NCBI GenBank assembly: GCA_033558025.1
Contig: JAUCEF010000007.1
Span: forward strand, 2,356,001-2,420,000
Reading direction: 5' to 3'
DNA length: 64,000 nt
Origin: Phytophthora sp. 'mugwort'
Taxonomy: Eukaryota > Oomycota > Peronosporomycetes > Peronosporales > Peronosporaceae
The position numbers and the translations under genes were made by a program. Shown in pieces: positions 1-43,538 of the stretch. The notes beneath the pieces are model-generated. The model saw nothing but the letters and a program-made list of their open reading frames with translations. It did no database searches and had not been told where the DNA came from. Each line of letters begins with the position of its first letter. The first letter of the stretch is position 1.

Positions 1-3000
1 CATGGCCTCCGGTTCCGACGGTGTCCTTGCTGCTTGCGCCGCCGCCAATATCCATCGCGCCTCCGACGTCAGCGTCTCCCGACCCCACGCGCACGACGAT
101 CGAGCCACTCGCGCCACCTGTCGCATCGGACGTCAGCACCGACACGCTCCCCGAGCTCCCACCCGATGACGCTCCGCTAGATAGCGTCACTGAACCGCTC
201 ACCTTGTCCGTTCCCGTACCGGAATCCGCGCTACCGACGGACACCGACCCACTCGTCGCACTCGAACCAGAACCGCTCGAGACTACTACATCACCCCCAA
301 CACCGCTAGACTCCGTGCCGCCGCTGATGTCCACAGCTCCGCCGGTCGTCGCTCCAGTGCCACCGACGATAAACACACGACCACCAACTCCAACACCATC
401 AGTGTCCGTGCCAGTGCTGTCGCCGCTCCGCACAAGAACGTCTCCGCCCATACTCGAGTCGCTGGACCCTACCAACAGGCTGATGGCACCCGCAGCTTTT
501 CCCTTCGCATTCGCCGTCGCGACGTCGATAGACCCAGAAGCGCCGCCAGTGGACACACCCGTCGACAGCGAGATTCCACCACTCGCCACTGCCCCGCCCG
601 TCACCAGCGAGATGCGGCCGCTTTGGGGCGCAGCGCCCGCCTCCAAGCTCGACAACAACACGTTTCCGCTCGTCACGTCGGTACCACCTCCGCTCTGAAT
701 CGACACCGTGCCACCACTTGTCGAACTACCGTCTCCCCCTGCAATGATCACCTCACCGCCGGTTTTGGCTGCTCCTGCTTTGAGAGATAAGGCTCCTCCT
801 GTGCCGGATGCATGGGAGGAAGTTCCAGCCATAAGGTCAATTACGCCACCTTTGTCAGCATCGCCAGACCCAACGTGAACATCTACTGAGCCTCCGCTCC
901 CGCCTCCTGCACTTGACGTTGAAATCAGAACTGTGCCCGAGTTTCCCACTTTCGCTGCACCCGACGACAACGTCACACGACCACTGGCATGGCTCACGCC
1001 GGAGTCAGCACTAGCAACAGTCACGTCTCCGCTAGCCGCATCACTCCCGCTGCCAGTCGTGATGGAAACGCTTCCACCGACGGTCTCCGAACCCGAGCCA
1101 CCATTTAGCACCACATCGCCTCCTCCAGTAGTACCGGTGCCTCCCGTCAAGCTGATCGCGCCTCCGACGCCGTTCTGGCTGTCTCCACCACGAGCGCTAA
1201 TGGACGCACTGTCCTCAGCATCACCAACCCCAGCAGCCACACTTATCGACCCGGCCTTACCTCCACTAGCATTCGATGTCGATACAGATACACCACCGGA
1301 CGAGCCAGTCTTCGCCACTCCCGTCGTCACTGAAACACTGCCGCTGGCCTGAGCGGAACCCGAATCCGCTGTGGACACCTTCACGTCGCCGCTCGTCGCA
1401 CCGTCCCCTCGGCCGCTCGAGATGAGCACGCTACCACCCAAGGACGAGGCGCCCACACCACCTGCCAACGTCAGGTCACCACCCACAGCAGTTCCCGATC
1501 CGCCACGCACCGTGACAGCGCCGCCTGTGCCCGTACCCGTCTCCGTCGTCGTGACCTCGTCCGTTGTCTGGGCCCTGCTCGTGCCGCCCTCGACACTCAC
1601 GGATCCGCCCGTATTCGAGTCGCCGGAGCCCACGCTCAGCGAGATCGACCCGCTCGCGCCTCCCGTCGAAGACCCTGTCAAAATGGACACCGACCCGGAA
1701 GTACCACCGCTCGCCGCTCCCGATGACACCTGCACGGCGCCGCTCGTGCTCGTCGTCGATGCCGCACTCGACACTATCACGACCCCACTCCTCGCGCTAT
1801 CGCCTGTGCCGCTGGAGATCAGTACCTGACCGCCAGCAGCCGATGTGCCAGTGCCAGAGCCTGCAATGACCTCAACGTCACCGCCTATAGCAGTGCCACT
1901 CCCGCCCTCCACGCGAACATGGCCTCCGGTTCCGACGGTGTCCTTGCTGCTTGCGCCGCCGCCAATATCCATCGCGCCTCCGACGTCAGCGTCTCCCGAC
2001 CCCACGCGCACGACGATCGAGCCACTCGCGCCACCAGTCGCATCCGACGTCAGCACCGACACGCTCCCCGAGCTCCCACCCGATGACGCTCCGCTAGATA
2101 GCGTCACTGAACCGCTCACCTTGTCCGCTCCCGTACCGGAATCCGCGCTACCGACGGACACCGACCCACTCGTCGCACTCGAACCAGAACCGCTCGAGAC
2201 TACTACATCACCCCCAACGCCGCTAGACTCCGTGCCGCCGCTGATGTCCACAGCTCCGCCGGTCGTCGCTCCAGTGCCACCGACGATAAACACACGACCA
2301 CCAACTCCAACACCATCAGTGTCCGTGCCAGTGCTGTCGCCGCTCCGCACAAGAACGTCTCCGCCCATACTCGAGTCGCTGGACCCTACCAACAGGCTGA
2401 TGGCACCCGCAGCTTTTCCCTTCGCATTCGCCGTCGCGACGTCGATAGACCCAGAAGCGCCGCCAGTGGACACACCCGTCGACAGCGAGATTCCACCACT
2501 CGCCACTGCCCCGCCCGTCACCAGCGAGATGCGGCCGCTTTGGGGCGCAGCGCCCGCCTCCAAGCTCGACAACAACACGTTTCCACTCGTCACGTCGGTG
2601 CCACCTCCGCTTTGAATCAACACAGTGCCACCCACAAGCGAGTCCCCGGCGCCTCCGATGAGTTCCACGTCACCACCGGTTTCACCCTCGCCACCAGAAA
2701 CAGACACCTTGCCTCCGACTCCAGACGACCCAGAGGATACCCCAGCAGAAAGCGTGATGCCACCACCGGTACTCTTTCCTCCGGACCCCACGAGCATCGC
2801 GATGTTGCCGCCCTGGCCAGTCGATGAGGCGCTAGAGGTTGTGACAATAACATCACCCGAGTTCCCGCCCATCCCTATTCCCGTCGTCATCGACACGCTG
2901 CCGCTGGCCTGAGCGGAACCCGAATCCGCTGTGGACACCTTCACGTCGCCGCTCGTCGCACCGTCCCCTCGGCCGCTCGAGATGAGCACGCTACCACCCA

Positions 3001-6000
3001 AGGACGAGGCGCCCACACCACCTGCCAACGTCAGGTCACCACCCACAGCAGTTCCCGATCCGCCACGCACCGTGACAGCGCCGCCTGTGCCCGTACCCGT
3101 CTCCGTCGTCGTGACCTCGTCCGTTGTCTGGGCCCTGCTCGTGCCGCCCTCGACACTCACGGATCCGCCCGTATTCGAGTCGCCGGAGCCCACGCTCAGC
3201 GAGATCGACCCGCTCGCGCCTCCCGTCGAAGACCCTGTCAAAATGGACACCGACCCGGAAGTACCACCGCTCGCCGCTCCCGATGACACCTGCACGGCGC
3301 CGCTCGTGCTCGTCGTCGATGCCGCACTCGACACTATCACGACCCCACTCCTCGCGCTATCGCCTGTGCCGCTGGAGATCAGTACCTGACCGCCAGCAGC
3401 CGATGTGCCAGTGCCAGAGCCTGCAATGACCTCAACGTCACCGCCTATAGCAGTGCCACTCCCGCCCTCCACGCGAACATGGCCTCCGGTTCCGACGGTG
3501 TCCTTGCTGCTTGCGCCGCCGCCAATATCCATCGCGCCTCCGACGTCAGCGTCTCCCGACCCCACGCGCACGACGATCGAGCCACTCGCGCCACCTGTCG
3601 CATCGGACGTCAGCACCGACACGCTCCCCGAGCTCCCACCCGATGACGCTCCGCTAGATAGCGTCACTGAACCGCTCACCTTGTCCGTTCCCGTACCGGA
3701 ATCCGCGCTACCGACGGACACCGACCCACTCGTCGCACTCGAACCAGAACCGCTCGAGACTACTACATCACCCCCAACACCGCTAGACTCCGTGCCGCCG
3801 CTGATGTCCACAGCTCCGCCGGTCGTCGCTCCAGTGCCACCGACGATAAACACACGACCACCAACTCCAACACCACCATCAGTGTCCGTGCCAGTGCTGT
3901 CGCCGCTCCGCACAAGAACGTCTCCGCCCATACTCGAGTCGCTGGACCCTACCAACAGGCTGATGGCACCCGCAGCTTTTCCCTTCGCATTCGCCGTCGC
4001 GACGTCGATAGACCCAGAAGCGCCGCCAGTGGACACACCCGTCGACAGCGAGATTCCACCACTCGCCACTGCCCCGCCCGTCACCAGCGAGATGCGGCCG
4101 CTTTGGGGCGCAGCGCCCGCCTCCAAGCTCGACAACAACACGTTTCCACTCGTCACGTCGGTGCCACCTCCGCTTTGAATCAACACAGTGCCACCCACAA
4201 GCGAGTCCCCGGCGCCTCCGATGAGTTCCACGTCACCACCGGTTTCACCCTCGCCACCAGAAACAGACACCTTGCCTCCGACTCCAGACGACCCAGAGGA
4301 TACCCCAGCAGAAAGCGTGATGCCACCACCGGTACTCTTTCCTCCGGACCCCACGAGCATCGCGATGTTGCCGCCCTGGCCAGTCGATGAGGCGCTAGAG
4401 GTTGTGACAATAACATCACCCGAGTTCCCGCCCATCCCTATTCCCGTCGTCATCGACACGCTGCCGCTGGCCTGAGCGGAACCCGAATCCGCTGTGGACA
4501 CCTTCACGTCGCCGCTCGTCGCACCGTCCCCTCGGCCGCTCGAGATGAGCACGCTACCACCCAAGGACGAGGCGCCCACACCACCTGCCAACGTCAGGTC
4601 ACCACCCACAGCAGTTCCCGATCCGCCACGCACCGTGACAGCGCCGCCTGTGCCCGTACCCGTCTCCGTCGTCGTGACCTCGTCCGTTGTCTGGGCCCTG
4701 CTCGTGCCGCCCTCGACACTCACGGATCCGCCCGTATTCGAGTCGCCGGAGCCCACGCTCAGCGAGATCGACCCGCTCGCGCCTCCCGTCGAAGACCCTG
4801 TCAAAATGGACACCGACCCGGAAGTACCACCGCTCGCCGCTCCCGATGACACCTGCACGGCGCCGCTCGTGCTCGTCGTCGATGCCGCACTCGACACTAT
4901 CACGACCCCACTCCTCGCGCTATCGCCTGTGCCGCTGGAGATCAGTACCTGACCGCCAGCAGCCGATGTGCCAGTGCCAGAGCCTGCAATGACCTCAACG
5001 TCACCGCCTATAGCAGTGCCACTCCCGCCCTCCACGCGAACATGGCCTCCGGTTCCGACGGTGTCCTTGCTGCTTGCGCCGCCGCCAATATCCATCGCGC
5101 CTCCGACGTCAGCGTCTCCCGACCCCACGCGCACGACGATCGAGCCACTCGCGCCACCAGTCGCATCCGACGTCAGCACCGACACGCTCCCCGAGCTCCC
5201 ACCCGATGACGCTCCGCTAGATAGCGTCACTGAACCGCTCACCTTGTCCGCTCCCGTACCGGAATCCGCGCTACCGACGGACACCGACCCACTCGTCGCA
5301 CTCGAACCAGAACCGCTCGAGACTACTACATCACCCCCAACGCCGCTAGACTCCGTGCCGCCGCTGATGTCCACAGCTCCGCCGGTCGTCGCTCCAGTGC
5401 CACCGACGATAAACACACGACCACCAACTCCAACACCATCAGTGTCCGTGCCAGTGCTGTCGCCGCTCCGCACAAGAACGTCTCCGCCCATACTCGAGTC
5501 GCTGGACCCTACCAACAGGCTGATGGCACCCGCAGCTTTTCCCTTCGCATTCGCCGTCGCGACGTCGATAGACCCAGAAGCGCCGCCAGTGGACACACCC
5601 GTCGACAGCGAGATTCCACCACTCGCCACTGCCCCGCCCGTCACCAGCGAGATGCGGCCGCTTTGGGGCGCAGCGCCCGCCTCCAAGCTCGACAACAACA
5701 CGTTTCCACTCGTCACGTCGGTGCCACCTCCGCTTTGAATCAACACAGTGCCACCCACAAGCGAGTCCCCGGCGCCTCCGATGAGTTCCACGTCACCACC
5801 GGTTTCACCCTCGCCACCAGAAACAGACACCTTGCCTCCGACTCCAGACGACCCAGAGGATACCCCAGCAGAAAGCGTGATGCCACCACCGGTACTCTTT
5901 CCTCCGGACCCCACGAGCATCGCGATGTTGCCGCCCTGGCCAGTCGATGAGGCGCTAGAGGTTGTGACAATAACATCACCCGAGTTCCCGCCCATCCCTA

Positions 6001-9000
6001 TTCCCGTCGTCATCGACACGCTGCCGCTGGCCTGAGCGGAACCCGAATCCGCTGTGGACACCTTCACGTCGCCGCTCGTCGCACCGTCCCCTCGGCCGCT
6101 CGAGATGAGCACGCTACCACCCAAGGACGAGGCGCCCACACCACCTGCCAACGTCAGGTCACCACCCACAGCAGTTCCCGATCCGCCACGCACCGTGACA
6201 GCGCCGCCTGTGCCCGTACCCGTCTCCGTCGTCGTGACCTCGTCCGTTGTCTGGGCCCTGCTCGTGCCGCCCTCGACACTCACGGATCCGCCCGTATTCG
6301 AGTCGCCGGAGCCCACGCTCAGCGAGATCGACCCGCTCGCGCCTCCCGTCGAAGACCCTGTCAAAATGGACACCGACCCGGAAGTACCACCGCTCGCCGC
6401 TCCCGATGACACCTGCACGGCGCCGCTCGTGCTCGTCGTCGATGCCGCACTCGACACTATCACGACCCCACTCCTCGCGCTATCGCCTGTGCCGCTGGAG
6501 ATCAGTACCTGACCGCCAGCAGCCGATGTGCCAGTGCCAGAGCCTGCAATGACCTCAACGTCACCGCCTATAGCAGTGCCACTCCCGCCCTCCACGCGAA
6601 CATGGCCTCCGGTTCCGACGGTGTCCTTGCTGCTTGCGCCGCCGCCAATATCCATCGCGCCTCCGACGTCAGCGTCTCCCGACCCCACGCGCACGACGAT
6701 CGAGCCACTCGCGCCACCTGTCGCATCGGACGTCAGCACCGACACGCTCCCCGAGCTCCCACCCGATGACGCTCCGCTAGATAGCGTCACTGAACCGCTC
6801 ACCTTGTCCGTTCCCGTACCGGAATCCGCGCTACCGACGGACACCGACCCACTCGTCGCACTCGAACCAGAACCGCTCGAGACTACTACATCACCCCCAA
6901 CACCGCTAGACTCCGTGCCGCCGCTGATGTCCACAGCTCCGCCGGTCGTCGCTCCAGTGCCACCGACGATAAACACACGACCACCAACTCCAACACCACC
7001 ATCAGTGTCCGTGCCAGTGCTGTCGCCGCTCCGCACAAGAACGTCTCCGCCCATACTCGAGTCGCTGGACCCTACCAACAGGCTGATGGCACCCGCAGCT
7101 TTTCCCTTCGCATTCGCCGTCGCGACGTCGATAGACCCAGAAGCGCCGCCAGTGGACACACCCGTCGACAGCGAGATTCCACCGCTCGCCACTGCCCCGC
7201 CCGTCACCAGCGAGATGCGGCCGCTTTGGGGCGCAGCGCCCGCCTCCAAGCTCGATAACAACACGTTTCCGCTCGTCACGTCGGTACCACCTCCGCTCTG
7301 AATCAACACCGTGCCACCACTTGTCGAACTACCGTCTCCCCCTGCAATGATCAACTCGCCGCCGGTTTTGGCTGCTCCTGCTTTGAGAGATAAGGCTCCT
7401 CCTGTGCCGGATGCATGGGAGGAAGTTCCAGCCATAAGGTCAATTACGCCACCTTTGTCAGCATCACCAGACCCAACGTGAACATCTACTGAGCCTCCGC
7501 TCCCGCCTCCTGCACTTGACGTTGAAATCAGAACTGTGCCCGAGTTTCCCACTTTCGCTGCACCCGACGACAACGTCACACGACCACTGGCATGGCTCAC
7601 GCCGGAGTCAGCACTAGCAACAGTCACGTCTCCGCTAGCCGCATCACTCCCGCTGCCAGTCGTGATGGAAACGCTTCCACCGACGGTCTCCAACCCCGAG
7701 CCACCATTTAGCACCACATTACCTCCTCCAGTAGTACCGGTGCCTCCCGTCAAGCTGATCGCGCCTCCGACGCCGTTCTGGCTGTCTCCACCACGAGCGC
7801 TAATGGACGCACTGTCCTCAGCATCACCAACCCCAGCAGCCACACTTATCGACCCGGCCTTACCTCCACTAGCATTCGATGTCGATACAGATACACCACC
7901 GGACGAGCCAGTCTTCGCCACTCCCGTCGTCACTGAAACACTGCCGCTGGCCTGAGCGGAACCCGAATCCGCTGTGGACACCTTCACGTCGCCGCTCGTC
8001 GCACCGTCCCCGCGGCCGCTCGAGATGAGCACGCTACCACCCAAGGACGAGGCGCCCGCACCACCTGCCAACGTCAGGTCACCACCCACAGCAGTTCCCG
8101 ATCCGCCACGCACCGTGACAGCGCCGCCTGTGCCCGTACCCGTCTCCGTCGTCGTGACCTCGTCCGTTGTCTGGGCCCTGCTCGTGCCGCCCTCGACACT
8201 CACGGATCCGCCCGTATTCGAGTCGCCGGAGCCCACGCTCAGCGAGATCGACCCGCTCGCGCCTCCCGTCGAAGACCCTGTCAAAATGGACACCGACCCG
8301 GAAGTACCACCGCTCGCCGCTCCCGATGACACCTGCACGGCGCCGCTCGTGCTCGTCGTCGATGCCGCACTCGACACTATCACGACCCCACTCCTCGCGC
8401 TATCGCCTGTGCCGCTGGAGATCAGTACCTGACCGCCAGCAGCCGATGTGCCAGTGCCAGAGCCTGCAATGACCTCAACGTCACCGCCTATAGCAGTGCC
8501 ACTCCCGCCCTCCACGCGAACATGGCCTCCGGTTCCGACGGTGTCCTTGCTGCTTGCGCCGCCGCCAATATCCATCGCGCCTCCGACGTCAGCGTCTCCC
8601 GACCCCACGCGCACGACGATCGAGCCACTCGCGCCACCTGTCGCATCCGACGTCAGCACCGACACGCTCCCCGAGCTCCCACCCGATGACGCTCCGCTAG
8701 ATAGCGTCACTGAACCGCTCACCTTGTCCGTTCCCGTACCGGAATCCGCGCTACCGACGGACACCGACCCACTCGTCGCACTCGAACCAGAACCGCTCGA
8801 GACTACTACATCACCCCCAACGCCGCTAGACTCCGTGCCGCCGCTGATGTCCACAGCTCCGCCGGTCGTCGCTCCAGTGCCACCGACGATAAACACACGA
8901 CCACCAACTCCAACACCACCATCAGTGTCCGTGCCAGTGCTGTCGCCGCTCCGCACAAGAACGTCTCCGCCCATACTCGAGTCGCTGGACCCTACCAACA

Positions 9001-12000
9001 GGCTGATGGCACCCGCAGCTTTTCCCTTCGCATTCGCCGTCGCGACGTCGATAGACCCAGAAGCGCCGCCAGTGGACACACCCGTCGACAGCGAGATTCC
9101 ACCACTCGCCACTGCCCCGCCCGTCACCAGCGAGATGCGGCCGCTTTGGGGCGCAGCGCCCGCCTCCAAGCTCGACAACAACACGTTTCCACTCGTCACG
9201 TCGGTGCCACCTCCGCTTTGAATCAACACAGTGCCACCCACAAGCGAGTCCCCGGCGCCTCCGATGAGTTCCACGTCACCACCGGTTTCACCCTCGCCAC
9301 CAGAAACAGACACCTTGCCTCCGACTCCAGACGACCCAGAGGATACCCCAGCAGAAAGCGTGATGCCACCACCGGTACTCTTTCCTCCGGACCCCACGAG
9401 CATCGCGATGTTGCCGCCCTGGCCAGTCGATGAGGCGCTAGAGGTTGTGACAATAACATCACCCGAGTTCCCGCCCATCCCTATTCCCGTCGTCATCGAC
9501 ACGCTGCCGCTGGCCTGAGCGGAACCCGAATCCGCTGTGGACACCTTCACGTCGCCGCTCGTCGCACCGTCCCCTCGGCCGCTCGAGATGAGCACGCTAC
9601 CACCCAAGGACGAGGCGCCCACACCACCTGCCAACGTCAGGTCACCACCCACAGCAGTTCCCGATCCGCCACGCACCGTGACAGCGCCGCCTGTGCCCGT
9701 ACCCGTCTCCGTCGTCGTGACCTCGTCCGTTGTCTGGGCCCTGCTCGTGCCGCCCTCGACACTCACGGATCCGCCCGTATTCGAGTCGCCGGAGCCCACG
9801 CTCAGCGAGATCGACCCGCTCGCGCCTCCCGTCGAAGACCCTGTCAAAATGGACACCGACCCGGAAGTACCACCGCTCGCCGCTCCCGATGACACCTGCA
9901 CGGCGCCGCTCGTGCTCGTCGTCGATGCCGCACTCGACACTATCACGACCCCACTCCTCGCGCTATCGCCTGTGCCGCTGGAGATCAGTACCTGACCGCC
10001 AGCAGCCGATGTGCCAGTGCCAGAGCCTGCAATGACCTCAACGTCACCGCCTATAGCAGTGCCACTCCCGCCCTCCACGCGAACATGGCCTCCGGTTCCG
10101 ACGGTGTCCTTGCTGCTTGCGCCGCCGCCAATATCCATCGCGCCTCCGACGTCAGCGTCTCCCGACCCCACGCGCACGACGATCGAGCCACTCGCGCCAC
10201 CTGTCGCATCGGACGTCAGCACCGACACGCTCCCCGAGCTCCCACCCGATGACGCTCCGCTAGATAGCGTCACTGAACCGCTCACCTTGTCCGTTCCCGT
10301 ACCGGAATCCGCGCTACCGACGGACACCGACCCACTCGTCGCACTCGAACCAGAACCGCTCGAGACTACTACATCACCCCCAACACCGCTAGACTCCGTG
10401 CCGCCACTGATGTCCACAGCGCCGCCGGTCGTCGCTCCAGTGCCACCGACGATAAACACACGACCACCAACTCCAACACCATCAGTGTCCGTGCCAGTGC
10501 TGTCGCCGCTCCGCACAAGAACGTCTCCGCCCATACTCGAGTCGCTGGACCCTACCAACAGGCTGATGGCACCCGCAGCTTTTCCCTTCGCATTCGCCGT
10601 CGCGACGTCGATAGACCCAGAAGCGCCGCCAGTGGACACACCCGTCGACAGCGAGATTCCACCACTCGCCACTGCCCCGCCCGTCACCAGCGAGATGCGG
10701 CCGCTTTGGGGCGCAGCGCCCGCCTCCAAGCTCGACAACAACACGTTTCCACTCGTCACGTCGGTACCACCTCCGCTCTGAATCGACACCGTGCCACCAC
10801 TTGTCGAACTACCGTCTCCCCCTGCAATGATCACCTCACCGCCGGTTTTGGCTGCTCCTGCTTTGAGAGATAAGGCTCCTCCTGTGCCGGATGCATGGGA
10901 GGAAGTTCCAGCCATAAGGTCAATTACGCCACCTTTGTCAGCATCGCCAGACCCAACGTGAACATCTACTGAGCCTCCGCTCCCGCCTCCTGCACTTGAC
11001 GTTGAAATCAGAACTGTGCCCGAGTTTCCCACTTTCGCTGCACCCGACGACAACGTCACACGACCACTGGCATGGCTCACGCCGGAGTCAGCACTAGCAA
11101 CAGTCACGTCTCCGCTAGCCGCATCACTCCCGCTGCCAGTCGTGATGGAAACGCTTCCACCGACGGTCTCCGAACCCGAGCCACCATTTAGCACCACATC
11201 GCCTCCTCCAGTAGTACCGGTGCCTCCCGTCAAGCTGATCGCGCCTCCGACGCCGTTCTGGCTGTCTCCACCACGAGCGCTAATGGACGCACTGTCCTCA
11301 GCATCACCAACCCCAGCAGCCACACTTATCGACCCGGCCTTACCTCCACTAGCATTCGATGTCGATACAGATACACCACCGGACGAGCGAGTCTTCGCCA
11401 CTCCCGTCGTCACTGAAACACTGCCGCTGGCCTGAGCGGAACCCGAATCCGCTGTGGACACCTTCACGTCGCCGCTCGTCGCACCGTCCCCTCGGCCGCT
11501 CGAGATGAGCACGCTACCACCCAAGGACGAGGCGCCCACACCACCTGCCAACGTCAGGTCACCACCCACAGCAGTTCCCGATCCGCCACGCACCGTGACA
11601 GCGCCGCCTGTGCCCGTACCCGTCTCCGTCGTCGTGACCTCGTCCGTTGTCTGGGCCCTGCTCGTGCCGCCCTCGACACTCACGGATCCGCCCGTATTCG
11701 AGTCGCCGGAGCCCACGCTCAGCGAGATCGACCCGCTCGCGCCTCCCGTCGAAGACCCTGTCAAAATGGACACCGACCCGGAAGTACCACCGCTCGCCGC
11801 TCCCGATGACACCTGCACGGCGCCGCTCGTGCTCGTCGTCGATGCCGCACTCGACACTATCACGACCCCACTCCTCGCGCTATCGCCTGTGCCGCTGGAG
11901 ATCAGTACCTGACCGCCAGCAGCCGATGTGCCAGTGCCAGAGCCTGCAATGACCTCAACGTCACCGCCTATAGCAGTGCCACTCCCGCCCTCCACGCGAA

Positions 12001-27000: not shown

Positions 27001-30000
27001 ACACCGACCCACTCGTCGCACTCGAACCAGAACCGCTCGAGACTACTACATCACCCCCAACACCGCTAGACTCCGTGCCGCCGCTGATGTCCACAGCTCC
27101 GCCGGTCGTCGCTCCAGTGCCACCGACGATAAACACACGACCACCAACTCCAACACCATCAGTGTCCGTGCCAGTGCTGTCGCCGCTCCGCACAAGAACG
27201 TCTCCGCCCATACTCGAGTCGCTGGACCCTACCAACAGGCTGATGGCACCCGCAGCTTTTCCCTTCGCATTCGCCGTCGCGACGTCGATAGACCCAGAAG
27301 CGCCGCCAGTGGACACACCCGTCGACAGTGAGATTCCACCGCTCGCCACTGCCCCGCCCGTCACCAGCGAGATGCGGCCGCTTTGGGGCGCAGCGCCCGC
27401 CTCCAAGCTCGATAACAACACGTTTCCACTCGTCATGTCGGTGCCACCTCCGCTTTGAATCAACACAGTGCCACCCACAAGCGAGTCCCCGGCGCCTCCG
27501 ATGAGTTCCACGTCACCACCGGTTTCACCCTCGCCACCAGAAACAGACACCTTGCCTCCGACTCCAGACGACCCAGAGGATACCCCAGCAGAAAGCGTGA
27601 TGCCACCACCGGTACTCTTTCCTCCGGACCCCACGAGCATCGCGATGTTGCCGCCCTGGCCAGTCGATGAGGCGCTAGAGGTTGTGACAATAACATCACC
27701 CGAGTTCCCGCCCATCCCTATTCCCGTCGTCATCGACACGCTGCCGCTGGCCTGAGCGGAACCCGAATTCGCTGTGGACACCTTCACGTCGCCGCTCGTC
27801 GCACCGTCCCCGCGGCCGCTCGAGATGAGCACGCTACCACCCAAGGACGAGGCGCCCGCACCACCTGCCAACGTCAGGTCACCACCCACAGCAGTTCCCG
27901 ATCCGCCACGCACCGTGACAGCGCCGCCTGTGCCCGTACCCGTCTCCGTCGTCGTGACCTCGTCCGTTGTCTGGGCCCTGCTCGTGCCGCCCTCGACACT
28001 CACGGATCCGCCCGTATTCGAGTCGCCGGAGCCCACGCTCAGCGAGATCGACCCGCTCGCGCCTCCCGTCGAAGACCCTGTCAAAATGGACACCGACCCG
28101 GAAGTACCACCGCTCGCCGCTCCCGATGACACCTGCACGGCGCCGCTCGTGCTCGTCGTCGATGCCGCACTCGACACTATCACGACCCCACTCCTCGCGC
28201 TATCGCCTGTGCCGCTGGAGATCAGTACCTGACCGCCAGCGGCCGATGTGCCAGTGCCAGAGCCTGCAGTGACCTCAACGTCACCGCCTATAGCAGTGCC
28301 ACTCCCGCCCTCCACGCGAACATGGCCTCCGGTTCCGACGGTGTCCTTGCTGCTTGCGCCGCCGCCAATATCCATCGCGCCTCCGACGTCAGCGTCTCCC
28401 GACCCCACGCGCACGACGATCGAGCCACTCGCGCCACCTGTCGCATCGGACGTCAGCACCGACACGCTCCCCGAGCTCCCACCCGATGACGCTCCGCTAG
28501 ATAGCGTCACTGAACCGCTCACCTTGTCCGTTCCCGTACCGGAATCCGCGCTACCGACGGACACCGACCCACTCGTCGCACTCGAACCAGAACCGCTCGA
28601 GACTACTACATCACCCCCAACACCGCTAGACTCCGTGCCGCCGCTGATGTCCACAGCTCCGCCGGTCGTCGCTCCAGTGCCACCGACGATAAACACACGA
28701 CCACCAACTCCAACACCATCAGTGTCCGTGCCAGTGCTGTCGCCGCTCCGCACAAGAACGTCTCCGCCCATACTCGAGTCGCTGGACCCTACCAACAGGC
28801 TGATGGCACCCGCAGCTTTTCCCTTCGCATTCGCCGTCGCGACGTCGATAGACCCAGAAGCGCCGCCAGTGGACACACCCGTCGACAGTGAGATTCCACC
28901 GCTCGCCACTGCCCCGCCCGTCACCAGCGAGATGCGGCCGCTTTGGGGCGCAGCGCCCGCCTCCAAGCTCGATAACAACACGTTTCCACTCGTCATGTCG
29001 GTGCCACCTCCGCTTTGAATCAACACAGTGCCACCCACAAGCGAGTCCCCGGCGCCTCCGATGAGTTCCACGTCACCACCGGTTTCACCCTCGCCACCAG
29101 AAACAGACACCTTGCCTCCGACTCCAGACGACCCAGAGGATACCCCAGCAGAAAGCGTGATGCCACCACCGGTACTCTTTCCTCCGGACCCCACGAGCAT
29201 CGCGATGTTGCCGCCCTGGCCAGTCGATGAGGCGCTAGAGGTTGTGACAATAACATCACCCGAGTTCCCGCCCATCCCTATTCCCGTCGTCATCGACACG
29301 CTGCCGCTGGCCTGAGCGGAACCCGAATTCGCTGTGGACACCTTCACGTCGCCGCTCGTCGCACCGTCCCCGCGGCCGCTCGAGATGAGCACGCTACCAC
29401 CCAAGGACGAGGCGCCCGCACCACCTGCCAACGTCAGGTCACCACCCACAGCAGTTCCCGATCCGCCACGCACCGTGACAGCGCCGCCTGTGCCCGTACC
29501 CGTCTCCGTCGTCGTGACCTCGTCCGTTGTCTGGGCCCTGCTCGTGCCGCCCTCGACACTCACGGATCCGCCCGTATTCGAGTCGCCGGAGCCCACGCTC
29601 AGCGAGATCGACCCGCTCGCGCCTCCCGTCGAAGACCCTGTCAAAATGGACACCGACCCGGAAGTACCACCGCTCGCCGCTCCCGATGACACCTGCACGG
29701 CGCCGCTCGTGCTCGTCGTCGATGCCGCACTCGACACTATCACGACCCCACTCCTCGCGCTATCGCCTGTGCCGCTGGAGATCAGTACCTGACCGCCAGC
29801 GGCCGATGTGCCAGTGCCAGAGCCTGCAGTGACCTCAACGTCACCGCCTATAGCAGTGCCACTCCCGCCCTCCACGCGAACATGGCCTCCGGTTCCGACG
29901 GTGTCCTTGCTGCTTGCGCCGCCGCCAATATCCATCGCGCCTCCGACGTCAGCGTCTCCCGACCCCACGCGCACGACGATCGAGCCACTCGCGCCACCTG

Positions 30001-33000
30001 TCGCATCGGACGTCAGCACCGACACGCTCCCCGAGCTCCCACCCGATGACGCTCCGCTAGATAGCGTCACTGAACCGCTCACCTTGTCCGTTCCCGTACC
30101 GGAATCCGCGCTACCGACGGACACCGACCCACTCGTCGCACTCGAACCAGAACCGCTCGAGACTACTACATCACCCCCAACACCGCTAGACTCCGTGCCG
30201 CCGCTGATGTCCACAGCTCCGCCGGTCGTCGCTCCAGTGCCACCGACGATAAACACACGACCACCAACTCCAACACCACCATCAGTGTCCGTGCCAGTGC
30301 TGTCGCCGCTCCGCACAAGAACGTCTCCGCCCATACTCGAGTCGCTGGACCCTACCAACAGGCTGATGGCACCCGCAGCTTTTCCCTTCGCATTCGCCGT
30401 CGCGACGTCGATAGACCCAGAAGCGCCGCCAGTGGACACACCCGTCGACAGCGAGATTCCACCGCTCGCCACTGCCCCGCCCGTCACCAGCGAGATGCGG
30501 CCGCTTTGGGGCGCAGCGCCCGCCTCCAAGCTCGATAACAACACGTTTCCGCTCGTCACGTCGGTACCACCTCCGCTCTGAATCGACACCGTGCCACCAC
30601 TTGTCGAACTACCGTCTCCCCCTGCAATGATCAACTCGCCGCCGGTTTTGGCTGCTCCTGCTTTGAGAGATAAGGCTCCTCCTGTGCCGGATGCATGGGA
30701 GGAAGTTCCAGCCATAAGGTCAATTACGCCACCTTTGTCAGCATCACCAGACCCAACGTGAACATCTACTGAGCCTCCGCTCCCGCCTCCTGCACTTGAC
30801 GTTGAAATCAGAACTGTGCCCGAGTTTCCCACTTTCGCTGCACCCGACGACAACGTCACACGACCACTGGCATGGCTCACGCCGGAGTCAGCACTAGCAA
30901 CAGTCACGTCTCCGCTAGCCGCATCACTCCCGCTGCCAGTCGTGATGGAAACGCTTCCACCGACGGTCTCCAACCCCGAGCCACCATTTAGCACCACATT
31001 ACCTCCTCCAGTAGTACCGGTGCCTCCCGTCAAGCTGATCGCGCCTCCGACGCCGTTCTGGCTGTCTCCACCACGAGCGCTAATGGACGCACTGTCCTCA
31101 GCATCACCAACCCCAGCAGCCACACTTATCGACCCGGCCTTACCTCCACTAGCATTCGATGTCGATACAGATACACCACCGGACGAGCCAGTCTTCGCCA
31201 CTCCCGTCGTCACTGAAACACTGCCGCTGGCCTGAGCGGAACCCGAATCCGCTGTGGACACCTTCACGTCGCCGCTCGTCGCACTGTCCCCTCGGCCGCT
31301 CGAGATGAGCACGCTCCCGCCTAAGGACCCGGCGCCCGCACCACCTGCCAACGTCAGGTCACCACCCACAGCAGTTCCCGATCCGCCACGCACCGTGACA
31401 GCGCCGCCTGTGCCCGTACCCGTCTCCGTCGTCGTGACCTCGTCCGTTGTCTGGGCCCTGCTCGTGCCGCCCTCGACACTCACGGATCCGCCCGTATTCG
31501 AGTCGCCGGAGCCCACGCTCAGCGAGATCGACCCGCTCCCGCCTCCCGTCGAAGACCCTGTCAAAATGGACACCGACCCGGAAGTACCACCGCTCGCCGC
31601 TCCCGATGACACCTGCACGGCGCCGCTCGTGCTCGTCGTCGATGCCGCACTCGACACCATCACGACCCCGCTCCTCGCGCTGTCGCCTGTGCCGCTGGAG
31701 ATCAGCACCTGGCCGCCAGCGGCCGATGTGCCAGTGCCAGAGCCTGCAGTGACCTCAACGTCACCGCCTATAGCAGTGCCACTCCCGCCCTCCACGCGAA
31801 CATGGCCTCCGGTTCCGACGGTGTCCTTGCTGCTTGCGCCGCCGCCAATATCCATCGCGCCTCCGACGTCAGCGTCTCCCGACCCCACGCGCACGACGAT
31901 CGAGCCACTCGCGCCACCAGTCGCATCCGACGTCAGCACCGACACGCTCCCCGAGCTCCCACCCGATGACGCTCCGCTAGATAGCGTCACTGAACCGCTC
32001 ACCTTGTCCGCTCCCGTACCGGAATCCGCGCTACCGACAGACACCGACCCACTCGTCGCACTCGAACCAGAACCGCTCGAGACTACTACATCACCCCCAA
32101 CACCGCTAGACTCCGTGCCGCCGCTGATGTCCACAGCTCCGCCGGTCGTCGCTCCAGTGCCACCGACGATAAACACACGACCACCAACTCCAACACCACC
32201 ATCAGTGTCCGTGCCAGTGCTGTCGCCGCTCCGCACAAGAACGTCTCCGCCCATACTCGAGTCGCTGGACCCTACCAACAGGCTGATGGCACCCGCAGCT
32301 TTTCCCTTCGCATTCGCCGTCGCGACGTCGATAGACCCAGAAGCGCCGCCAGTAGACACACCCGTCGACAGTGAGATTCCACCGCTCGCCACTGCCCCGC
32401 CCGTCACCAGCGAGATGCGGCCGCTTTGGGGCGCAGCGCCCGCCTCCAAGCTCGACAACAACACGTTTCCGCTCGCCACGTCGGTACCACCTCCGCTCTG
32501 AATCGACACCGTGCCACCACTTGTCGAACTACCGTCTCCCCCTGCAATGATCAACTCGCCGCCGGTTTTGGCTGCTCCTGCTTTGAGAGATAAGGCTCCT
32601 CCTGTGCCGGATGCATGGGAGGAAGTTCCAGCCATAAGGTCAATTACGCCACCTTTGTCAGCATCACCAGACCCAACGTGAACATCTACTGAGCCTCCGC
32701 TCCCGCCTCCTGCACTTGACGTTGAAATCAGAACTGTGCCCGAGTTTCCCACTTTCGCTGCACCCGACGACAACGTCACACGACCACTGGCATGGCTCAC
32801 GCCGGAGTCAGCACTAGCAACAGTCACGTCTCCGCTAGCCGCATCACTCCCGCTGCCAGTCGTGATGGAAACGCTTCCACCGACGGTGTTCAACCCCGAG
32901 CCACCATTTAGCACCACATTACCTCCTCCAGTAGTACCGGTGCCTCCCGTCAAGCTGATCGCGCCTCCGACGCCGTTCTGGCTGTCTCCACCACGAGCGC

Positions 33001-36000
33001 TAATGGACGCACTGTCCTCAGCATCACCAACCCCAGCAGCCACACTTATCGATCCGGCCTTACCTCCACTAGCATTCGATGTCGATACAGATACACCACC
33101 GGACGAGCCAGTCTTCGCCACTCCCGTCGTCATCGACACGCTGCCGCTGGCCTGAGCGGAACCCGAATCCGCTGTGGACACCTTCACGTCGCCGCTCGTC
33201 GCACTGTCCCCTCGGCCGCTCGAGATGAGCACGCTCCCGCCTAAGGACCCGGCGCCCGCACCACCTGCCAACGTCAGGTCACCACCCACAGCAGTTCCCG
33301 ATCCGCCACGCACCGTGACAGCGCCGCCTGTGCCCGTACCCGTCTCCGTCGTCGTGACCTCGTCCGTTGTCTGGGCCCTGCTCGTGCCGCCCTCGACACT
33401 CACGGATCCGCCCGTATTCGAGTCGCCGGAGCCCACGCTCAGCGAGATCGACCCGCTCGCGCCTCCCGTCGAAGACCCTGTCAAAATGGACACCGACCCG
33501 GAAGTACCACCGCTCGCCGCTCCCGATGACACCTGCACGGCGCCGCTCGTGCTCGTCGTCGATGCCGCACTCGACACCATCACGACCCCGCTCCTCGCGC
33601 TGTCGCCTGTGCCGCTGGAGATCAGCACCTGGCCGCCAGCGGCCGATGTGCCAGTGCCAGAGCCTGCAGTGACCTCAACGTCACCGCCTATAGCAGTGCC
33701 ACTCCCGCCCTCCACGCGAACATGGCCTCCGGTTCCGACGGTGTCCTTGCTGCTTGCGCCGCCGCCAATATCCATCGCGCCTCCGACGTCAGCGTCTCCC
33801 GACCCCACGCGCACGACGATCGAGCCACTCGCGCCACCAGTCGCATCCGACGTCAGCACCGACACGCTCCCCGAGCTCCCACCCGATGACGCTCCGCTAG
33901 ATAGCGTCACTGAACCGCTCACCTTGTCCGCTCCCGTACCGGAATCCGCGCTACCGACAGACACCGACCCACTCGTCGCACTCGAACCAGAACCGCTCGA
34001 GACTACTACATCACCCCCAACACCGCTAGACTCCGTGCCGCCGCTGATGTCCACAGCTCCGCCGGTCGTCGCTCCAGTGCCACCGACGATAAACACACGA
34101 CCACCAACTCCAACACCACCATCAGTGTCCGTGCCAGTGCTGTCGCCGCTCCGCACAAGAACGTCTCCGCCCATACTCGAGTCGCTGGACCCTACCAACA
34201 GGCTGATGGCACCCGCAGCTTTTCCCTTTGCATTCGCCGTCGCGACGTCGATAGACCCAGAAGCGCCGCCAGTAGACACACCCGTCGACAGTGAGATTCC
34301 ACCGCTCGCCACTGCCCCGCCCGTCACCAGCGAGATGCGGCCGCTTTGGGGCGCAGCGCCCGCCTCCAAGCTCGACAACAACACGTTTCCGCTCGCCACG
34401 TCGGTACCACCTCCGCTCTGAATCGACACCGTGCCACCACTTGTCGAACTACCGTCTCCCCCTGCAATGATCAACTCGCCGCCGGTTTTGGCTGCTCCTG
34501 CTTTGAGAGATAAGGCTCCTCCTGTGCCGGATGCATGGGAGGAAGTTCCAGCCATAAGGTCAATTACGCCACCTTTGTCAGCATCACCAGACCCAACGTG
34601 AACATCTACTGAGCCTCCGCTCCCGCCTCCTGCACTTGACGTTGAAATCAGAACTGTGCCCGAGTTTCCCACTTTCGCTGCACCCGACGACAACGTCACA
34701 CGACCACTGGCATGGCTCACGCCGGAGTCAGCACTAGCAACAGTCACGTCTCCGCTAGCCGCATCACTCCCGCTGCCAGTCGTGATGGAAACGCTTCCAC
34801 CGACGGTGTCCAACCCCGAGCCACCATTTAGCACCACATTACCTCCTCCAGTAGTACCGGTGCCTCCCGTCAAGCTGATCGCGCCTCCGACGCCGTTCTG
34901 GCTGTCTCCACCACGAGCGCTAATGGACGCACTGTCCTCAGCATCACCAACCCCAGCAGCCACACTTATCGACCCGGCCTTACCTCCACTAGCATTCGAT
35001 GTCGATACAGATACACCACCGGACGAGCCAGTCTTCGCCACTCCCGTCGTCATCGACACGCTGCCGCTGGCCTGAGCGGAACCCGAATCCGCTGTGGACA
35101 CCTTCACGTCGCCGCTCGTCGCACTGTCCCCTCGGCCGCTCGAGATGAGCACGCTCCCGCCTAAGGACCCGGCGCCCGCACCACCTGCCAACGTCAGGTC
35201 ACCACCCACAGCAGTTCCCGATCCGCCACGCACCGTGACAGCGCCGCCTGTGCCCGTACCCGTCTCCGTCGTCGTGACCTCGTCCGTTGTCTGGGCCCTG
35301 CTCGTGCCGCCCTCGACACTCACGGATCCGCCCGTATTCGAGTCGCCGGAGCCCACGCTCAGCGAGATCGACCCGCTCGCGCCTCCCGTCGAAGACCCTG
35401 TCAAAATGGACACCGACCCGGAAGTACCACCGCTCGCCGCTCCCGATGACACCTGCACGGCGCCGCTCGTGCTCGTCGTCGATGCCGCACTCGACACCAT
35501 CACGACCCCGCTCCTCGCGCTGTCGCCTGTGCCGCTGGAGATCAGCACCTGGCCGCCAGCGGCCGATGTGCCAGTGCCAGAGCCTGCAGTGACCTCAACG
35601 TCACCGCCTATAGCAGTGCCACTCCCGCCCTCCACGCGAACATGGCCTCCGGTTCCGACGGTGTCCTTGCTGCTTGCGCCGCCGCCAATATCCATCGCGC
35701 CTCCGACGTCAGCGTCTCCCGACCCCACGCGCACGACGATCGAGCCACTCGCGCCACCAGTCGCATCCGATGTCAGCACCGACACGCTCCCCGAGCTCCC
35801 ACCCGATGACGCTCCGCTAGATAGCGTCACTGAACCGCTCACCTTGTCCGCTCCCGTACCGGAATCCGCGCTACCGACAGACACCGACCCACTCGTCGCA
35901 CTCGAACCAGAACCGCTCGAGACTACTACATCACCCCCAACACCGCTAGACTCCGTGCCGCCGCTGATGTCCACAGCTCCGCCGGTCGTCGCTCCAGTGC

Positions 36001-39000
36001 CACCGACGATAAACACACGACCACCAACTCCAACACCACCATCAGTGTCCGTGCCAGTGCTGTCGCCGCTCCGCACAAGAACGTCTCCGCCCATACTCGA
36101 GTCGCTGGACCCTACCAACAGGCTGATGGCACCCGCAGCTTTTCCCTTTGCATTCGCCGTCGCGACGTCGATAGACCCAGAAGCGCCGCCAGTAGACACA
36201 CCCGTCGACAGTGAGATTCCACCGCTCGCCACTGCCCCGCCCGTCACCAGCGAGATGCGGCCGCTTTGGGGCGCAGCGCCCGCCTCCAAGCTCGACAACA
36301 ACACGTTTCCGCTCGCCACGTCGGTACCACCTCCGCTCTGAATCGACACCGTGCCACCACTTGTCGAACTACCGTCTCCCCCTGCAATGATCAACTCGCC
36401 GCCGGTTTTGGCTGCTCCTGCTTTGAGAGATAAGGCTCCTCCTGTGCCGGATGCATGGGAGGAAGTTCCAGCCATAAGGTCAATTACGCCACCTTTGTCA
36501 GCATCACCAGACCCAACGTGAACATCTACTGAGCCTCCGCTCCCGCCTCCTGCACTTGACGTTGAAATCAGAACTGTGCCCGAGTTTCCCACTTTCGCTG
36601 CACCCGACGACAACGTCACACGACCACTGGCATGGCTCACGCCGGAGTCAGCACTAGCAACAGTCACGTCTCCGCTAGCCGCATCACTCCCGCTGCCAGT
36701 CGTGATGGAAACGCTTCCACCGACGGTGTTCAACCCCGAGCCACCATTTAGCACCACATTACCTCCTCCAGTAGTACCGGTGCCTCCCGTCAAGCTGATC
36801 GCGCCTCCGACGCCGTTCTGGCTGTCTCCACCACGAGCGCTAATGGACGCACTGTCCTCAGCATCACCAACCCCAGCAGCCACACTTATCGATCCGGCCT
36901 TACCTCCACTAGCATTCGATGTCGATACAGATACACCACCGGACGAGCCAGTCTTCGCCACTCCCGTCGTCACTGAAACACTGCCGCTGGCCTGAGCGGA
37001 ACCCGAATCCGCTGTGGACACCTTCACGTCGCCGCTCGTCGCACTGTCCCCTCGGCCGCTCGAGATGAGCACGCTACCACCCAAGGACGAGGCGCCCGCA
37101 CCACCTGCCAACGTCAGGTCACCACCCACAGCAGTTCCCGATCCGCCACGCACCGTGACAGCGCCGCCTGTGCCCGTACCCGTCTCCGTCGTCGTGACCT
37201 CGTCCGTTGTCTGGGCCCTGCTCGTGCCGCCCTCGACACTCACGGATCCGCCCGTATTCGAGTCGCCGGAGCCCACGCTCAGCGAGATCGACCCGCTCGC
37301 GCCTCCCGTCGAAGACCCTGTCAAAATGGACACCGACCCGGAAGTACCACCGCTCACCGCTCCCGATGACACCTGCACGGCGCCGCTCGTGCTCGTCGTC
37401 GATGCCGCACTCGACACCATCACGACCCCGCTCCTCGCGCTGTCGCCTGTGCCGCTGGAGATCAGCACCTGGCCGCCAGCGGCCGATGTGCCAGTGCCAG
37501 AGCCTGCAGTGACCTCAACGTCACCGCCTATAGCAGTGCCACTCCCGCCCTCCACGCGAACATGGCCTCCGGTTCCGACGGTGTCCTTGCTGCTTGCGCC
37601 GCCGCCAATATCCATCGCGCCTCCGACGTCAGCGTCTCCCGACCCCACGCGCACGACGATCGAGCCACTCGGGCCACCTGTCGCATCGGACGTCAGCACC
37701 GACACGTTTCCCGAGCTTCCGGCCGAGGAAACCCCAGTTGTGAGGGTTATGCTTCCTGTTGTTTGTGACGGTGAGGATTGCAATTCGATAGCTCCACTAC
37801 GTCCAGGTGCTCCTCTGCCGCTATCAATGGCGATAGACCCACCGGTGGCCTGGTTCCCCAATAAATTACCGGCATCAGCCGCTGCCAGCTTAATGTCCCC
37901 CCCAATATTAGGACTTGATCCTGCACTGACGAGGACAGATCCACCTTGATATTGAGGATCTGAAGTCGAGCCAGCTGTTACTTGGATGAGGCCCCCTTCG
38001 TTGGTATCACCTTCACCGACAGCAATTCGAATGGAGCCTCCACTTCCACCGGTCGAAGAGGATGATCCGATAGCAAAATCACCTGACTTGCCCCCATAGG
38101 AAGACCCAGTGAAAACATCAATGCTTCCCGAGTCACCAGCATTCGTATTGCCACTAGAGAGTTTAATAACACCCGATGGCCCCAGCTTTCCTGCTCCAGA
38201 GCCAATCTCAACTGAACCAGATGCGGCACGATCAACAATACCATCAGATGTGTGGAGCAGTAGCCTTCCGGAGGCTGAGCCGTAATTGCTTTGTCCCGTT
38301 TCCACGTCTACATCTCCTCCAAGTTTCCAGTTTGATGCTCCCGAACGGATAGCCACCTTTGAACCAGGTTTGTTGTCTAGCGACCCAGCGATTAGCAGCA
38401 AGTCCTTTGCTGGTTGAAGACTAATAGAACCAACTTCTGACGAAATGATGCTAGCGTCTCCTAGAAGCTCGACGCTAGTGTGATTAATTTTCACACGACC
38501 CGCCGATACCCCATCCAATGTCGTTGATACGATGACATCTGCTGTGATAACTTCTCCATTTTTTGTCGCTGTCACATCAATACTCGCACCAGCACGAACA
38601 TCGACACCTGCACTTACTTCCAGCAGAATGCCGGCACCGACGCCATCCACATATATGGGCAAGTCATCGTAAGATGAACCAGCAAACGGTCGGTCAAGGA
38701 AAAACTGTTCTGGTGTCACCGGGCGGACAGGATCAACGAGATACGAGCCGCCTGCTAAGCGAACAAATGTGCTCCCGGCCAACTCTTTCGACAAATCGAC
38801 TAGGGTTGTTACAACATCACTGCCGTGCACCACAGAAACATTTCCAGGCAGCAAGTGGCCTGTCTTCAAGCTAGCATCGGTGAAGTGTCGAATCTGCATC
38901 ACCTTATGCGGTGCAGCCGAGTTAATCGTGTCGTCATGCGAGTAGATCTGGAACCCGCGCGAGTTCATCACTGATTGCAGCGTCGTGTCTTCGCTCGTAG

Positions 39001-39710
39001 AGAAAACTCTCTTACGGACTTCAATACTTTCGCTACCAGTCAAGCGATGCTGTAGACCTTCGTCAAGAAAAATGGCGGTAGCGCTCACACCGATCACCGT
39101 GCGCGCATCTAGCTGCCCCAAAAGCACAATATCTCCAACATTTACATACGCCCTGTCCCCGTATAGTTAGTTACATAAATGCACATGTCAGCCGCCAATC
39201 ACTGTAGCAGTGACCTGTTTACTGCAAAAACCACCAACCAACCTGATGTCGTTCGTCGTCGGCACGCTTGTAGCCCCCACCACAGCACCAGGACTCTGGA
39301 CGGAATCAATATTCCGGTACACCTTCCCCGATCTCACGGAGAGTGATGCTGAGCCATACACTGGATGGCTCTTCACCGACACCTCGCCCACGAGATGATT
39401 ATCTGCGCCGTCAACCCCCCAGCATACTTACATATTAGTAACTCCAGCCTCCGCATCCAGCAAGCATCAGCGTTAACGCACCGAACATGAAAGGGTCACG
39501 GGGAGATGGTTTGACCGTCGAGTCTAGCAGTCGGCGCTTCATCTGGACCTGCGCACTCGTCTTCACGGCCTCCTTCGGCTGCGTGCCAGCCGTCTCTGTT
39601 GCTGTTTGCGGCGGTAACCCCGCCAGCGTCCCTCCTCCATCTGCCACTACCCACGGAGTCCACGCCGTCAACCCTGCTGTCAGCAGGCCGAGCATCTGTA
39701 GAAACCGCAT
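1..39710 (-). CDS. giant secreted Gly/Ser-rich tandem-repeat protein (C-terminus beyond window)
   Basis: I do not recognise a named family. Proposed exons on the minus strand are 39710-39482, 39426-39243 and 39152-1. The start ATG is followed by a hydrophobic signal-peptide-like stretch (MRFLQMLGLLTAGLTAW) and a clear polar region, so secretion is inferred. Intron 1 (55 nt) has donor GTGCGT and a TACTAAT branch-like site; intron 2 (90 nt) has donor GTTGGT, a TAACTAAC branch-like site and a CAG acceptor. Both joins keep frame. Exon 3 is open for about 13,050 codons to the window edge, giving at least 13,188 codons in all. After roughly 480 non-array residues it becomes a tandem array of 520/521- and 639/640-residue units. 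Residues are mostly G, S, T, V, A and D in a recurring GGxVxVxSGxxxS pattern with almost no Cys, which suggests a beta-solenoid fibre or surface/adhesin-like protein. Function is unknown. Pro-rich plus-strand frames here are shadows. Confidence 0.85.
1918..7170 (-). repeat. higher-order repeat: 3123-bp dimer duplicated
   Basis: The pair of units at 1918 (1560 bp, carrying CACCAGTCGCATCCG and TTGTCCGCTCCCG) and 3478 (1563 bp, carrying CACCTGTCGCATCGG, TTGTCCGTTCCCG and the extra ACC) recurs in the same order at 5041 and 6601. The offset is exactly 3123 bp. The second copy then continues as a long unit instead of a short one, and private differences begin near 7180. Confidence 0.75.
22081..29880 (-). 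repeat. block of five consecutive short (1560 bp) units
   Basis: Five 1560-bp units start at 22081, 23641, 25201, 26761 and 28321. A private variant GAACCCGAATTCGCTGTGG, in place of ...GAATCC..., occurs at about 23086, 24646, 26206, 27766 and 29326 and nowhere else in the array. The five copies at exact 1560-bp spacing point to recent local amplification. Confidence 0.85.
29881..37560 (-). repeat. block of four consecutive long (1920 bp) units
   Basis: Four 1920-bp units follow each other at 29881, 31801, 33721 and 35641. The last three share private variants, such as CTACCGACAGACACC, GCCAGTAGACACACC and GCTCGCCACGTCGG. Three consecutive copies share the variant CTCCCGCCTAAGGACCCGG at about 31314, 33234 and 35154. 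This is the pattern expected of very recent unit-length duplication or gene conversion. Confidence 0.85.
39153..39242 (-). other. intron 2 of the giant repeat gene (predicted)
   Basis: The minus-strand donor is GTTGGT and the acceptor CAG, preceded by a TAACTAAC branch-point match. Splicing in phase 2 joins ...TTNDIR to AYVNVGDIVLLGQLD without a stop. A competing donor, GTAAAC at about 39226, would put the downstream frame into a stop. Confidence 0.6.
39427..39481 (-). other. intron 1 of the giant repeat gene (predicted)
   Basis: The minus-strand donor is GTGCGT and the acceptor is AG just after TACTAATATGTAAG. The splice joins codon phase 1 and removes an in-frame TAA that otherwise ends the signal-peptide frame at 39435. 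The 55-nt length suits oomycete introns. Confidence 0.65.
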
Positions 39711-43424: not shown

Positions 43425-43538
43425 ACCCAATACCCTCAAGATGCTTAACAGAGGCAAGTGCATATCCGTGTCACAAATAACAATCATGAAGCAAAAATAT
43501 CTTGATCGCTTGCTTAGTACAAAATGCTGTGTGATGCA

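What the first reader, a model, noticed from the sequence alone, without database searches (positions are those of the whole stretch)
1..39710. A hidden gene of more than 13,000 codons on the minus strand
The minus-strand frame with triplet boundaries at positions equal to 2 mod 3 is open from 39152 to the left edge: no TTA, CTA or TCA plus-strand triplet was found in frame through a complete long unit, the short-specific segment or the unique N-terminal part. It is preceded by a signal-peptide exon and two plausible introns. An ORF caller that needs a stop inside the window misses it and reports the Pro-rich antisense frames instead. A secreted protein above 1.2 MDa would be among the largest known in oomycetes.
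Basis: partly seen in the sequence, partly recalled or inferred. Interest (0 to 1): 0.92.

Follow-up and report, generated by a model that had tools for sequence, protein, structure and literature searches.

The report
Phytophthora giant secreted repeat-protein gene
A water-mould plant pathogen appears to carry a real gene for a 17,635-residue, probably secreted, highly repetitive protein, and elsewhere in the same genome a related gene predicted to make a protein of about 43,157 residues, longer than the muscle protein titin.

Summary
The minus frame is open from window 39166 to the left edge (13,055 codons) and runs 13.4 kb further in the contig to a stop: 17,510 codons. A signal-peptide-like exon and two short predicted introns give 17,635 aa, 1.57 MDa. 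The sense frame has 0 stops, the other five frames 106 to 742. Codon usage fits three neighbours best in the sense frame (r 0.62; other frames 0.02 to 0.54). The host is a Phytophthora. The protein is built of 15-residue G/S-rich coils, eight per ~122-residue module, about 26 near-identical units, and a C-x14-C tail. A paralogue on contig 18 is predicted at about 43,157 aa, 124 kb of it in one exon; I read only parts of it. No Pfam or NCBIfam family passed its cut-off for the pieces tested. Best reading: genuine genes for secreted, elongated extracellular or surface proteins. The fold is unproven; there is no transcript or protein evidence.

The parts
39482..39710 (-). Exon 1: ATG at 39710, hydrophobic signal-peptide-like start (MRFLQMLGLLTAGLTAWTPWVVA...)
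   Evidence: signal peptide judged by eye, no predictor run
39403..39481 (-). Intron 1, 79 nt, GTGCGT...GCGCAG
   Evidence: predicted only
39243..39402 (-). Exon 2, 160 nt
   Evidence: predicted only
39153..39242 (-). Intron 2, 90 nt, GTTGGT...GGACAG; of four acceptors tested for this donor only this one leaves the frame open
   Evidence: predicted only
1..39152 (-). Exon 3, window part; continues left outside the window to the TAG at C7:2342634-2342636 (52,516 nt before the stop)
38327..39152 (-). Start of exon 3 without clear coils; boundary set by eye (residues from about 176 of the query already match the repeats weakly)
   Evidence: no Pfam, PHROGs or NCBIfam hit for the pieces holding it
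37670..38326 (-). Diverged 15-residue coils leading into the array
2..37669 (-). Tandem array of 640-aa (modules A-B-C-D-E) and 520-aa (A-B-X-E) units, continuing left of the window
18039..36341 (+). Stretch holding six antisense Pro-rich shadow frames of 420-421 aa (18039-19301, 19599-20861, 26196-27458, 31236-32501, 33156-34421, 35076-36341), judged not to be genes

Best explanation
It is a genuine protein-coding gene of a Phytophthora species. It encodes a secreted protein of about 17,635 residues whose body is a very long regular stack of 15-residue Gly/Ser-rich, beta-type coils (8 coils per module, 4-5 modules per unit, about 26 near-identical units plus a diverged tail), followed by a heptad-like stalk and a small C-terminal cap with the only two cysteines of the 17,510-codon frame. 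It most likely works as an elongated extracellular or cell-surface fibre (coat, tether or adhesive), lengthened and kept homogeneous by in-frame unequal exchange of whole units. A second gene of the same family on contig 18 is predicted at about 43,157 residues. Shown by computation: the frame, its coding signature, the repeat anatomy, the paralogy. Inferred: secretion, fibre fold, surface role, unequal exchange.
For: 0 stops in 17,510 codons against 742, 629, 316, 106 and 637 in the other frames. RSCU correlation with three neighbouring open frames 0.62 in the sense frame; others 0.34, 0.02, 0.16, 0.02, 0.54. Variant bases between near-identical copies at codon positions 1, 2, 3, summed over the five module sets: 6, 7, 26. 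pN/pS between 18 diverged modules 0.58 with no stops in this frame. Signal-peptide-like exon and in-frame introns. A paralogue on another contig, 38-41% identical over about 500 aa, best E 4.5e-37, also with a hydrophobic start and a C-x14-C C-terminal cap (26% over 171 aa, E 2e-07 for that single comparison). Computed pI 4.2; G plus S 45% of the window part.
Against: No transcript or peptide data. No structure: AlphaFold2 gave mean pLDDT 43 and 51. Antisense frame 1 has almost the same pN/pS as the sense frame, between diverged modules (0.62) and between near-identical copies, because wobble positions coincide; for module B three other frames score lower than the sense frame (0.40, 0.54 and 0.34 against 0.55). 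Antisense frame 2 has a codon-usage correlation of 0.54, though 637 stops. Copy number depends on assembly of units averaging 99.2% DNA identity between same-length pairs. Signal peptides were judged by eye. The protein searches found no relative, though their length limits exclude a full-length 17,635-aa relative.
Confidence: 0.62

Rival explanations
1. The real gene(s) are on the plus strand: Pro-rich antisense frames of about 420 aa repeated through the array; the long minus frame is their shadow.
For: Plus frames of 420-421 aa recur in the repeats; antisense frame 1 pN/pS is close to the sense value (0.62 against 0.58; 0.11, 0.54, 0.55, 0.14 and 0 against 0.16, 0.55, 0.44, 0.14 and 0 for modules A to E).
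Against: 106 stops in that frame over the ORF and 19 in the diverged 2,310-codon tail where the minus frame has none; codon-usage correlation 0.02 against 0.62; the minus frame has a signal-peptide-like exon and a C-terminal cap resembling the paralogue's.
Confidence: 0.03
2. A satellite or minisatellite array that happens to be open because its unit length is a multiple of three, not a functional gene.
For: Same-length units are 98.1-100% identical in DNA and all unit lengths keep the frame.
Against: Open through the start of exon 3 and the diverged tail; log10 P of -56.5 for 3,449 codons; pN/pS 0.58 between diverged modules; a second, diverged and also open locus on another contig.
Confidence: 0.04
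3. The gene is real but the length is an assembly product: copies were added or lost, so the true protein is several units shorter or longer; or the gene is a recently silenced, not yet decayed relic.
For: Two pairs of units are identical in DNA and same-length units average 99.2% identity; higher-order offsets of about 1,680 and 3,360 residues.
Against: 23 distinct DNA sequences among 25 units; no frame break in 52.5 kb argues against indel errors and against an old relic.
Confidence: 0.25

Closest known systems
Contig-18 paralogue in the same genome (C18:1521008-1650731, minus)
   Same: Same 15-residue coil grammar, hydrophobic start, C-x14-C C-terminal cap; 38-41% identity over about 500 aa
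   Different: Predicted at about 43,157 aa with 3 introns; a Cys-rich N-terminal exon with no second match in the genome; a 417-aa repeat in the sampled array; no heptad stalk as in C7 seen in its tail by eye
PcLpv/PnLpv, high-molecular-weight glycoproteins of zoospore large peripheral vesicles (passages of PMC3869178)
   Same: Very large (>400 kDa) Phytophthora glycoproteins of the secretory/vesicle system
   Different: Those passages say PnLpv stays in its vesicles during normal encystment; no sequence was available to compare; a 178-aa repeat for PnLpv is recalled, not read here, and would not match; membership untested
Giant repeat proteins: titin (34,350 aa) and the beta-helical protein of Chlorobium (about 35,000 aa), both from passages of PMC3836704
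   Same: Extreme length; titin and our protein from repeats; the Chlorobium one is called beta-helical there
   Different: No sequence relation seen: no Pfam or NCBIfam hit over cut-off for the pieces tested and no relative of three modules among 592 pattern matches in prokaryote genomes
Trimeric fibre shafts with 15-residue repeats (adenovirus and reovirus triple beta-spiral; recalled)
   Same: 15-residue period, Gly at fixed positions, C-terminal cap; weak PHROGs matches of the stalk and cap to phage families of unknown function
   Different: Fewer hydrophobic positions per repeat than recalled for the triple beta-spiral; no match for the modules themselves; trimerisation untested

Membership tests
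Protein-coding gene | Long open frame beyond chance, in one frame only | tested here: met
Protein-coding gene | Codon usage as in neighbouring genes and third-position variation between copies | tested here: met
   the variation test alone does not separate the frame from antisense frame 1
Protein-coding gene | Transcript or peptide evidence | not testable with these tools
   No RNA or proteome data held
Huge proteins (>5,000 aa; start of abstract and passages of PMC11573180) | Length above 5,000 aa | tested here: met
   17,635 aa by the gene model; paralogue about 43,157 aa
Beta-solenoid or trimeric beta fibre | Regular short coil period | tested here: met
   In the non-redundant part, 93 of 176 spacings of a coil pattern are exactly 15 residues, 154 of 176 are 13-17
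Beta-solenoid or trimeric beta fibre | Confident structural model or homologue of known fold | tested here: inconclusive
   pLDDT 43 and 51; no solved-structure sequence match for two pieces
PnLpv family | Sequence similarity to PnLpv repeats | not tested
   No PnLpv sequence was at hand
Any named Pfam or NCBIfam family | Score over the curated cut-off | tested here: not met
   Pfam: no hit for two C7 pieces and the C18 N-terminal exon. NCBIfam: four pieces, one hit far below cut-off (NF041249, 15.4 bits against 100)

The most novel reading that the evidence does not exclude
Phytophthora carries a two-gene family of giant fibre proteins whose extended lengths (about 0.5 and 1.3 micrometres if each 15-residue coil adds 0.48 nm, an assumption) act as molecular rulers for an extracellular structure, for example the tubular flagellar hairs reported as 1.5 micrometres long in P. 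parasitica zoospores (passages of PMC9068220), with the repeat number set by in-frame unequal exchange. The roughly 43,157-residue member would be among the longest predicted eukaryotic proteins, and its 124-kb coding exon among the longest.
Probability: 0.06. Interest if true: 0.9.

Novelty: new variant of a known kind. Interest (0 to 1): 0.66.

Why it matters
No Pfam or NCBIfam model caught the pieces tested, and a caller that needs a stop inside a window misses the frame, so proteins of this kind may be absent from oomycete proteomes and from proteomic searches. If expressed, a 1.57 MDa protein and a paralogue more than twice as long would pose direct questions about how a 53-130 kb coding message is transcribed, spliced, translated into the secretory pathway and folded, and which surface structure of a plant pathogen they build. 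Two loci with clean repeats make this testable by long-read RNA, agarose gels and peptide searches.

Tried and rejected
AlphaFold2 on three modules (pLDDT 43; it drew about one short strand per coil) and on two modules (pLDDT 51, no secondary structure assigned): not used. PMC11795689 (abstract and section list seen) warns that AF2 over-predicts beta-solenoids for repeats, so no fold search was run. Homologue searches of the C-terminal 500 aa (7,995 candidates scored, none at E<=0.01) and of residues 1-500 of a 10,000-aa stretch (454 candidates, none) found nothing; they see only proteins of 0.55-1.75 times the query length, which leaves out a full-length 17,635-aa protein. A three-module query found no relative in viral contigs (77 pattern stretches) or prokaryote genomes (592 stretches). 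Tandem Repeats Finder returned no rows; its longest period is 500 bases, the near-identical units are 1,560-1,923. Plus-strand genes and satellite DNA were rejected as told under rivals. In 9 paper searches no listed title or abstract start describes these genes; only the best-ranked papers are listed and the library holds only openly licensed PMC papers. PMC11139960 (passages) was looked at for the genome and not used. Longer proteins recalled, not read: a haptophyte polyketide synthase; PMC11573180 (passages) says Omnitrophota proteins exceed eukaryotic ones. One search used an arbitrary protease family only to learn where the window lies.

Full report
Observation. The minus frame 2..39166 is open for 13,055 codons in the window. 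The window is C7:2356001-2420000 of an 86.3-Mb, 154-contig genome. Reading 100 kb to the left shows the frame closes with TAG at C7:2342634-2342636: 17,510 codons stop to stop, no N; one search gives the same figure.

Gene model. ATG at window 39710 starts a hydrophobic segment; introns of 79 and 90 nt with GT..AG borders join it to the long exon in frame, giving 17,635 aa, 1.57 MDa, pI 4.2. Of the four second-intron acceptors tested only one keeps the frame open, but a loose scan of splice pairs counted 1,015 combinations that keep the first 900-1,000 nt open, so the exact junctions are a proposal. No signal-peptide predictor was available.

Is it coding? Stops over the ORF: sense 0; others 742, 629, 316, 106, 637. 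In the diverged tail of 2,310 codons the sense frame has 0 and the best antisense frame 19. With a stop rate of 0.037 per codon the chance for 3,449 codons (start of exon 3, one five-module unit, tail) is 10^-56.5 (all). Variant bases among near-identical copies fall 6, 7, 26 on codon positions 1, 2, 3, summed over the five module sets; for B and E only the first 80 and 20 residues of each copy were compared. By module pN/pS is 0.16, 0.55, 0.44, 0.14 and 0 (E has one variant). Antisense frame 1 gives much the same values, and for B two further frames score lower than the sense frame, so this test does not choose the strand. Between 18 diverged modules pN/pS is 0.58 in the sense frame and 0.62 in antisense frame 1, again no choice. 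What separates those two frames is the stops and codon usage: correlation with three neighbouring open frames is 0.62 in the sense frame and 0.02 in antisense frame 1. Antisense frame 2 reaches 0.54 but has 637 stops; the tail alone gives 0.49 for the sense frame and -0.08 for antisense frame 1.

Anatomy. Coils follow [S/G]-G-x-[V/I/L]-x-[L/I/V]-x-[S/T]-G-...; 93 of 176 spacings in the non-redundant part are 15 residues, 154 of 176 are 13-17. Eight coils form a module of about 122 residues, traced through the diverged tail. Modules A-B-C-D-E make 640-residue units; A-B-X-E make 520-residue units; X has its own first part and a second part like D. There are 26 A, 26 B, 26 E, 11 C and 11 D anchors. 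Among 25 units between successive A anchors there are 23 distinct DNA sequences; the 90 same-length pairs average 99.2% identity, lowest 98.1%. The tail ends in about 33 heptad-like VxFSGxx repeats and a cap with C-x14-C, the only cysteines of the 17,510 codons. The last 400 residues found no second match in the genome at E<=0.001.

Paralogue. On contig 18, minus strand, a frame of 41,472 codons (1521011-1645426) follows one of 1,583 codons. A four-exon model (introns 97, 78, 75 nt) gives 43,157 aa, or 43,151-43,153 with two other acceptors tried for the second intron, with 124,376 nt in the last exon. I read only parts of this gene: the N-terminal 10 kb, 3.6 kb inside, 4 kb of the array and the last 5 kb; the rest rests on the tool's open-frame figure. 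The sampled array has a 417-residue repeat, 98.6% identical at that shift. C7 and C18 match at 38-41% over about 500 residues, best E 4.5e-37; the cap likeness (shared C-x14-C and LR[F/Y]DxG) rests, and genome searches did not list it. C18's Cys-rich first exon has no second match in the genome, so the two N-termini are not visibly related. Two genome searches with C18 pieces counted 195 and 140 matches; every listed match lies in these two genes, but one search did not list all 195 and the tool scored only 64 of 137 and 54 of 118 candidates, so a third member is not excluded.

Organism. The neighbouring ABC-transporter protein (window 48023-52141) has 29 hits at E<=1e-50; the best 15 are Phytophthora (one known by its JGI tag Phyca11): P. 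oleae 89%, P. idaei 88%, P. ramorum 86%, P. infestans 85%. The species was not determined.

Function. Secretion is inferred from the N-termini. The regular coil, the Gly/Ser content, the absence of cysteine from the long exon outside the cap and the cap itself suggest an elongated extracellular or surface fibre. Neither AF2 job gave a usable model, so solenoid, trimeric fibre or partly disordered polymer remain open. Known huge Phytophthora glycoproteins of zoospore vesicles, PnLpv >400 kDa (passages of PMC3869178), are candidates by size but were not compared, and those passages report that PnLpv is not secreted at normal encystment. The link to flagellar hairs of 1.5 micrometres (passages of PMC9068220) rests on arithmetic and an assumed rise per coil; it is a bold reading only. 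The three known mastigoneme proteins carry EGF-like domains, one of them at 64 kDa (passages of PMC12223298), which neither supports nor excludes a giant partner.

Novelty. No Pfam or NCBIfam family passed its cut-off for the pieces tested. Giant repeat proteins are a known kind; titin is given as 34,350 aa and a beta-helical Chlorobium protein as about 35,000 (passages of PMC3836704). The C18 model would exceed both. Longer proteins exist (Omnitrophota, passages of PMC11573180; a haptophyte polyketide synthase is recalled).

Noticed in passing
G000:C18:1521008-1650731 (minus), loci L020-L022, L027, L030, L040, L041, L043: A paralogue predicted at about 43,157 aa, with a Cys-rich N-terminal exon and a 124,376-nt last exon.
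   Followed up: partly
G000:C5:7867613-7972820: A cluster of papain-family (PF00112) matches, seven with identical scores, several spaced about 9.9 kb apart: looks like a recent tandem amplification of a protease gene.
   Followed up: no
window 28058-29989 and other 520-aa units: Module X in the short unit is not a clean deletion: its first part differs from both C and D, its second part is like D.
   Followed up: partly
C7 ORF residues about 17210-17460 (locus L010): About 33 heptad-like VxFSGxx repeats before the cap, with weak PHROGs hits to phage families of unknown function.
   Followed up: no
window 42435-54239: Neighbours: CTLH-domain protein, KICSTOR C12orf66-like protein, LRAT plus RING-type zinc-finger protein, ABC transporter, amino-acid permease.
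   Followed up: no
window 61455-61526: tRNA-Thr (anticodon AGT) on the plus strand.
   Followed up: no
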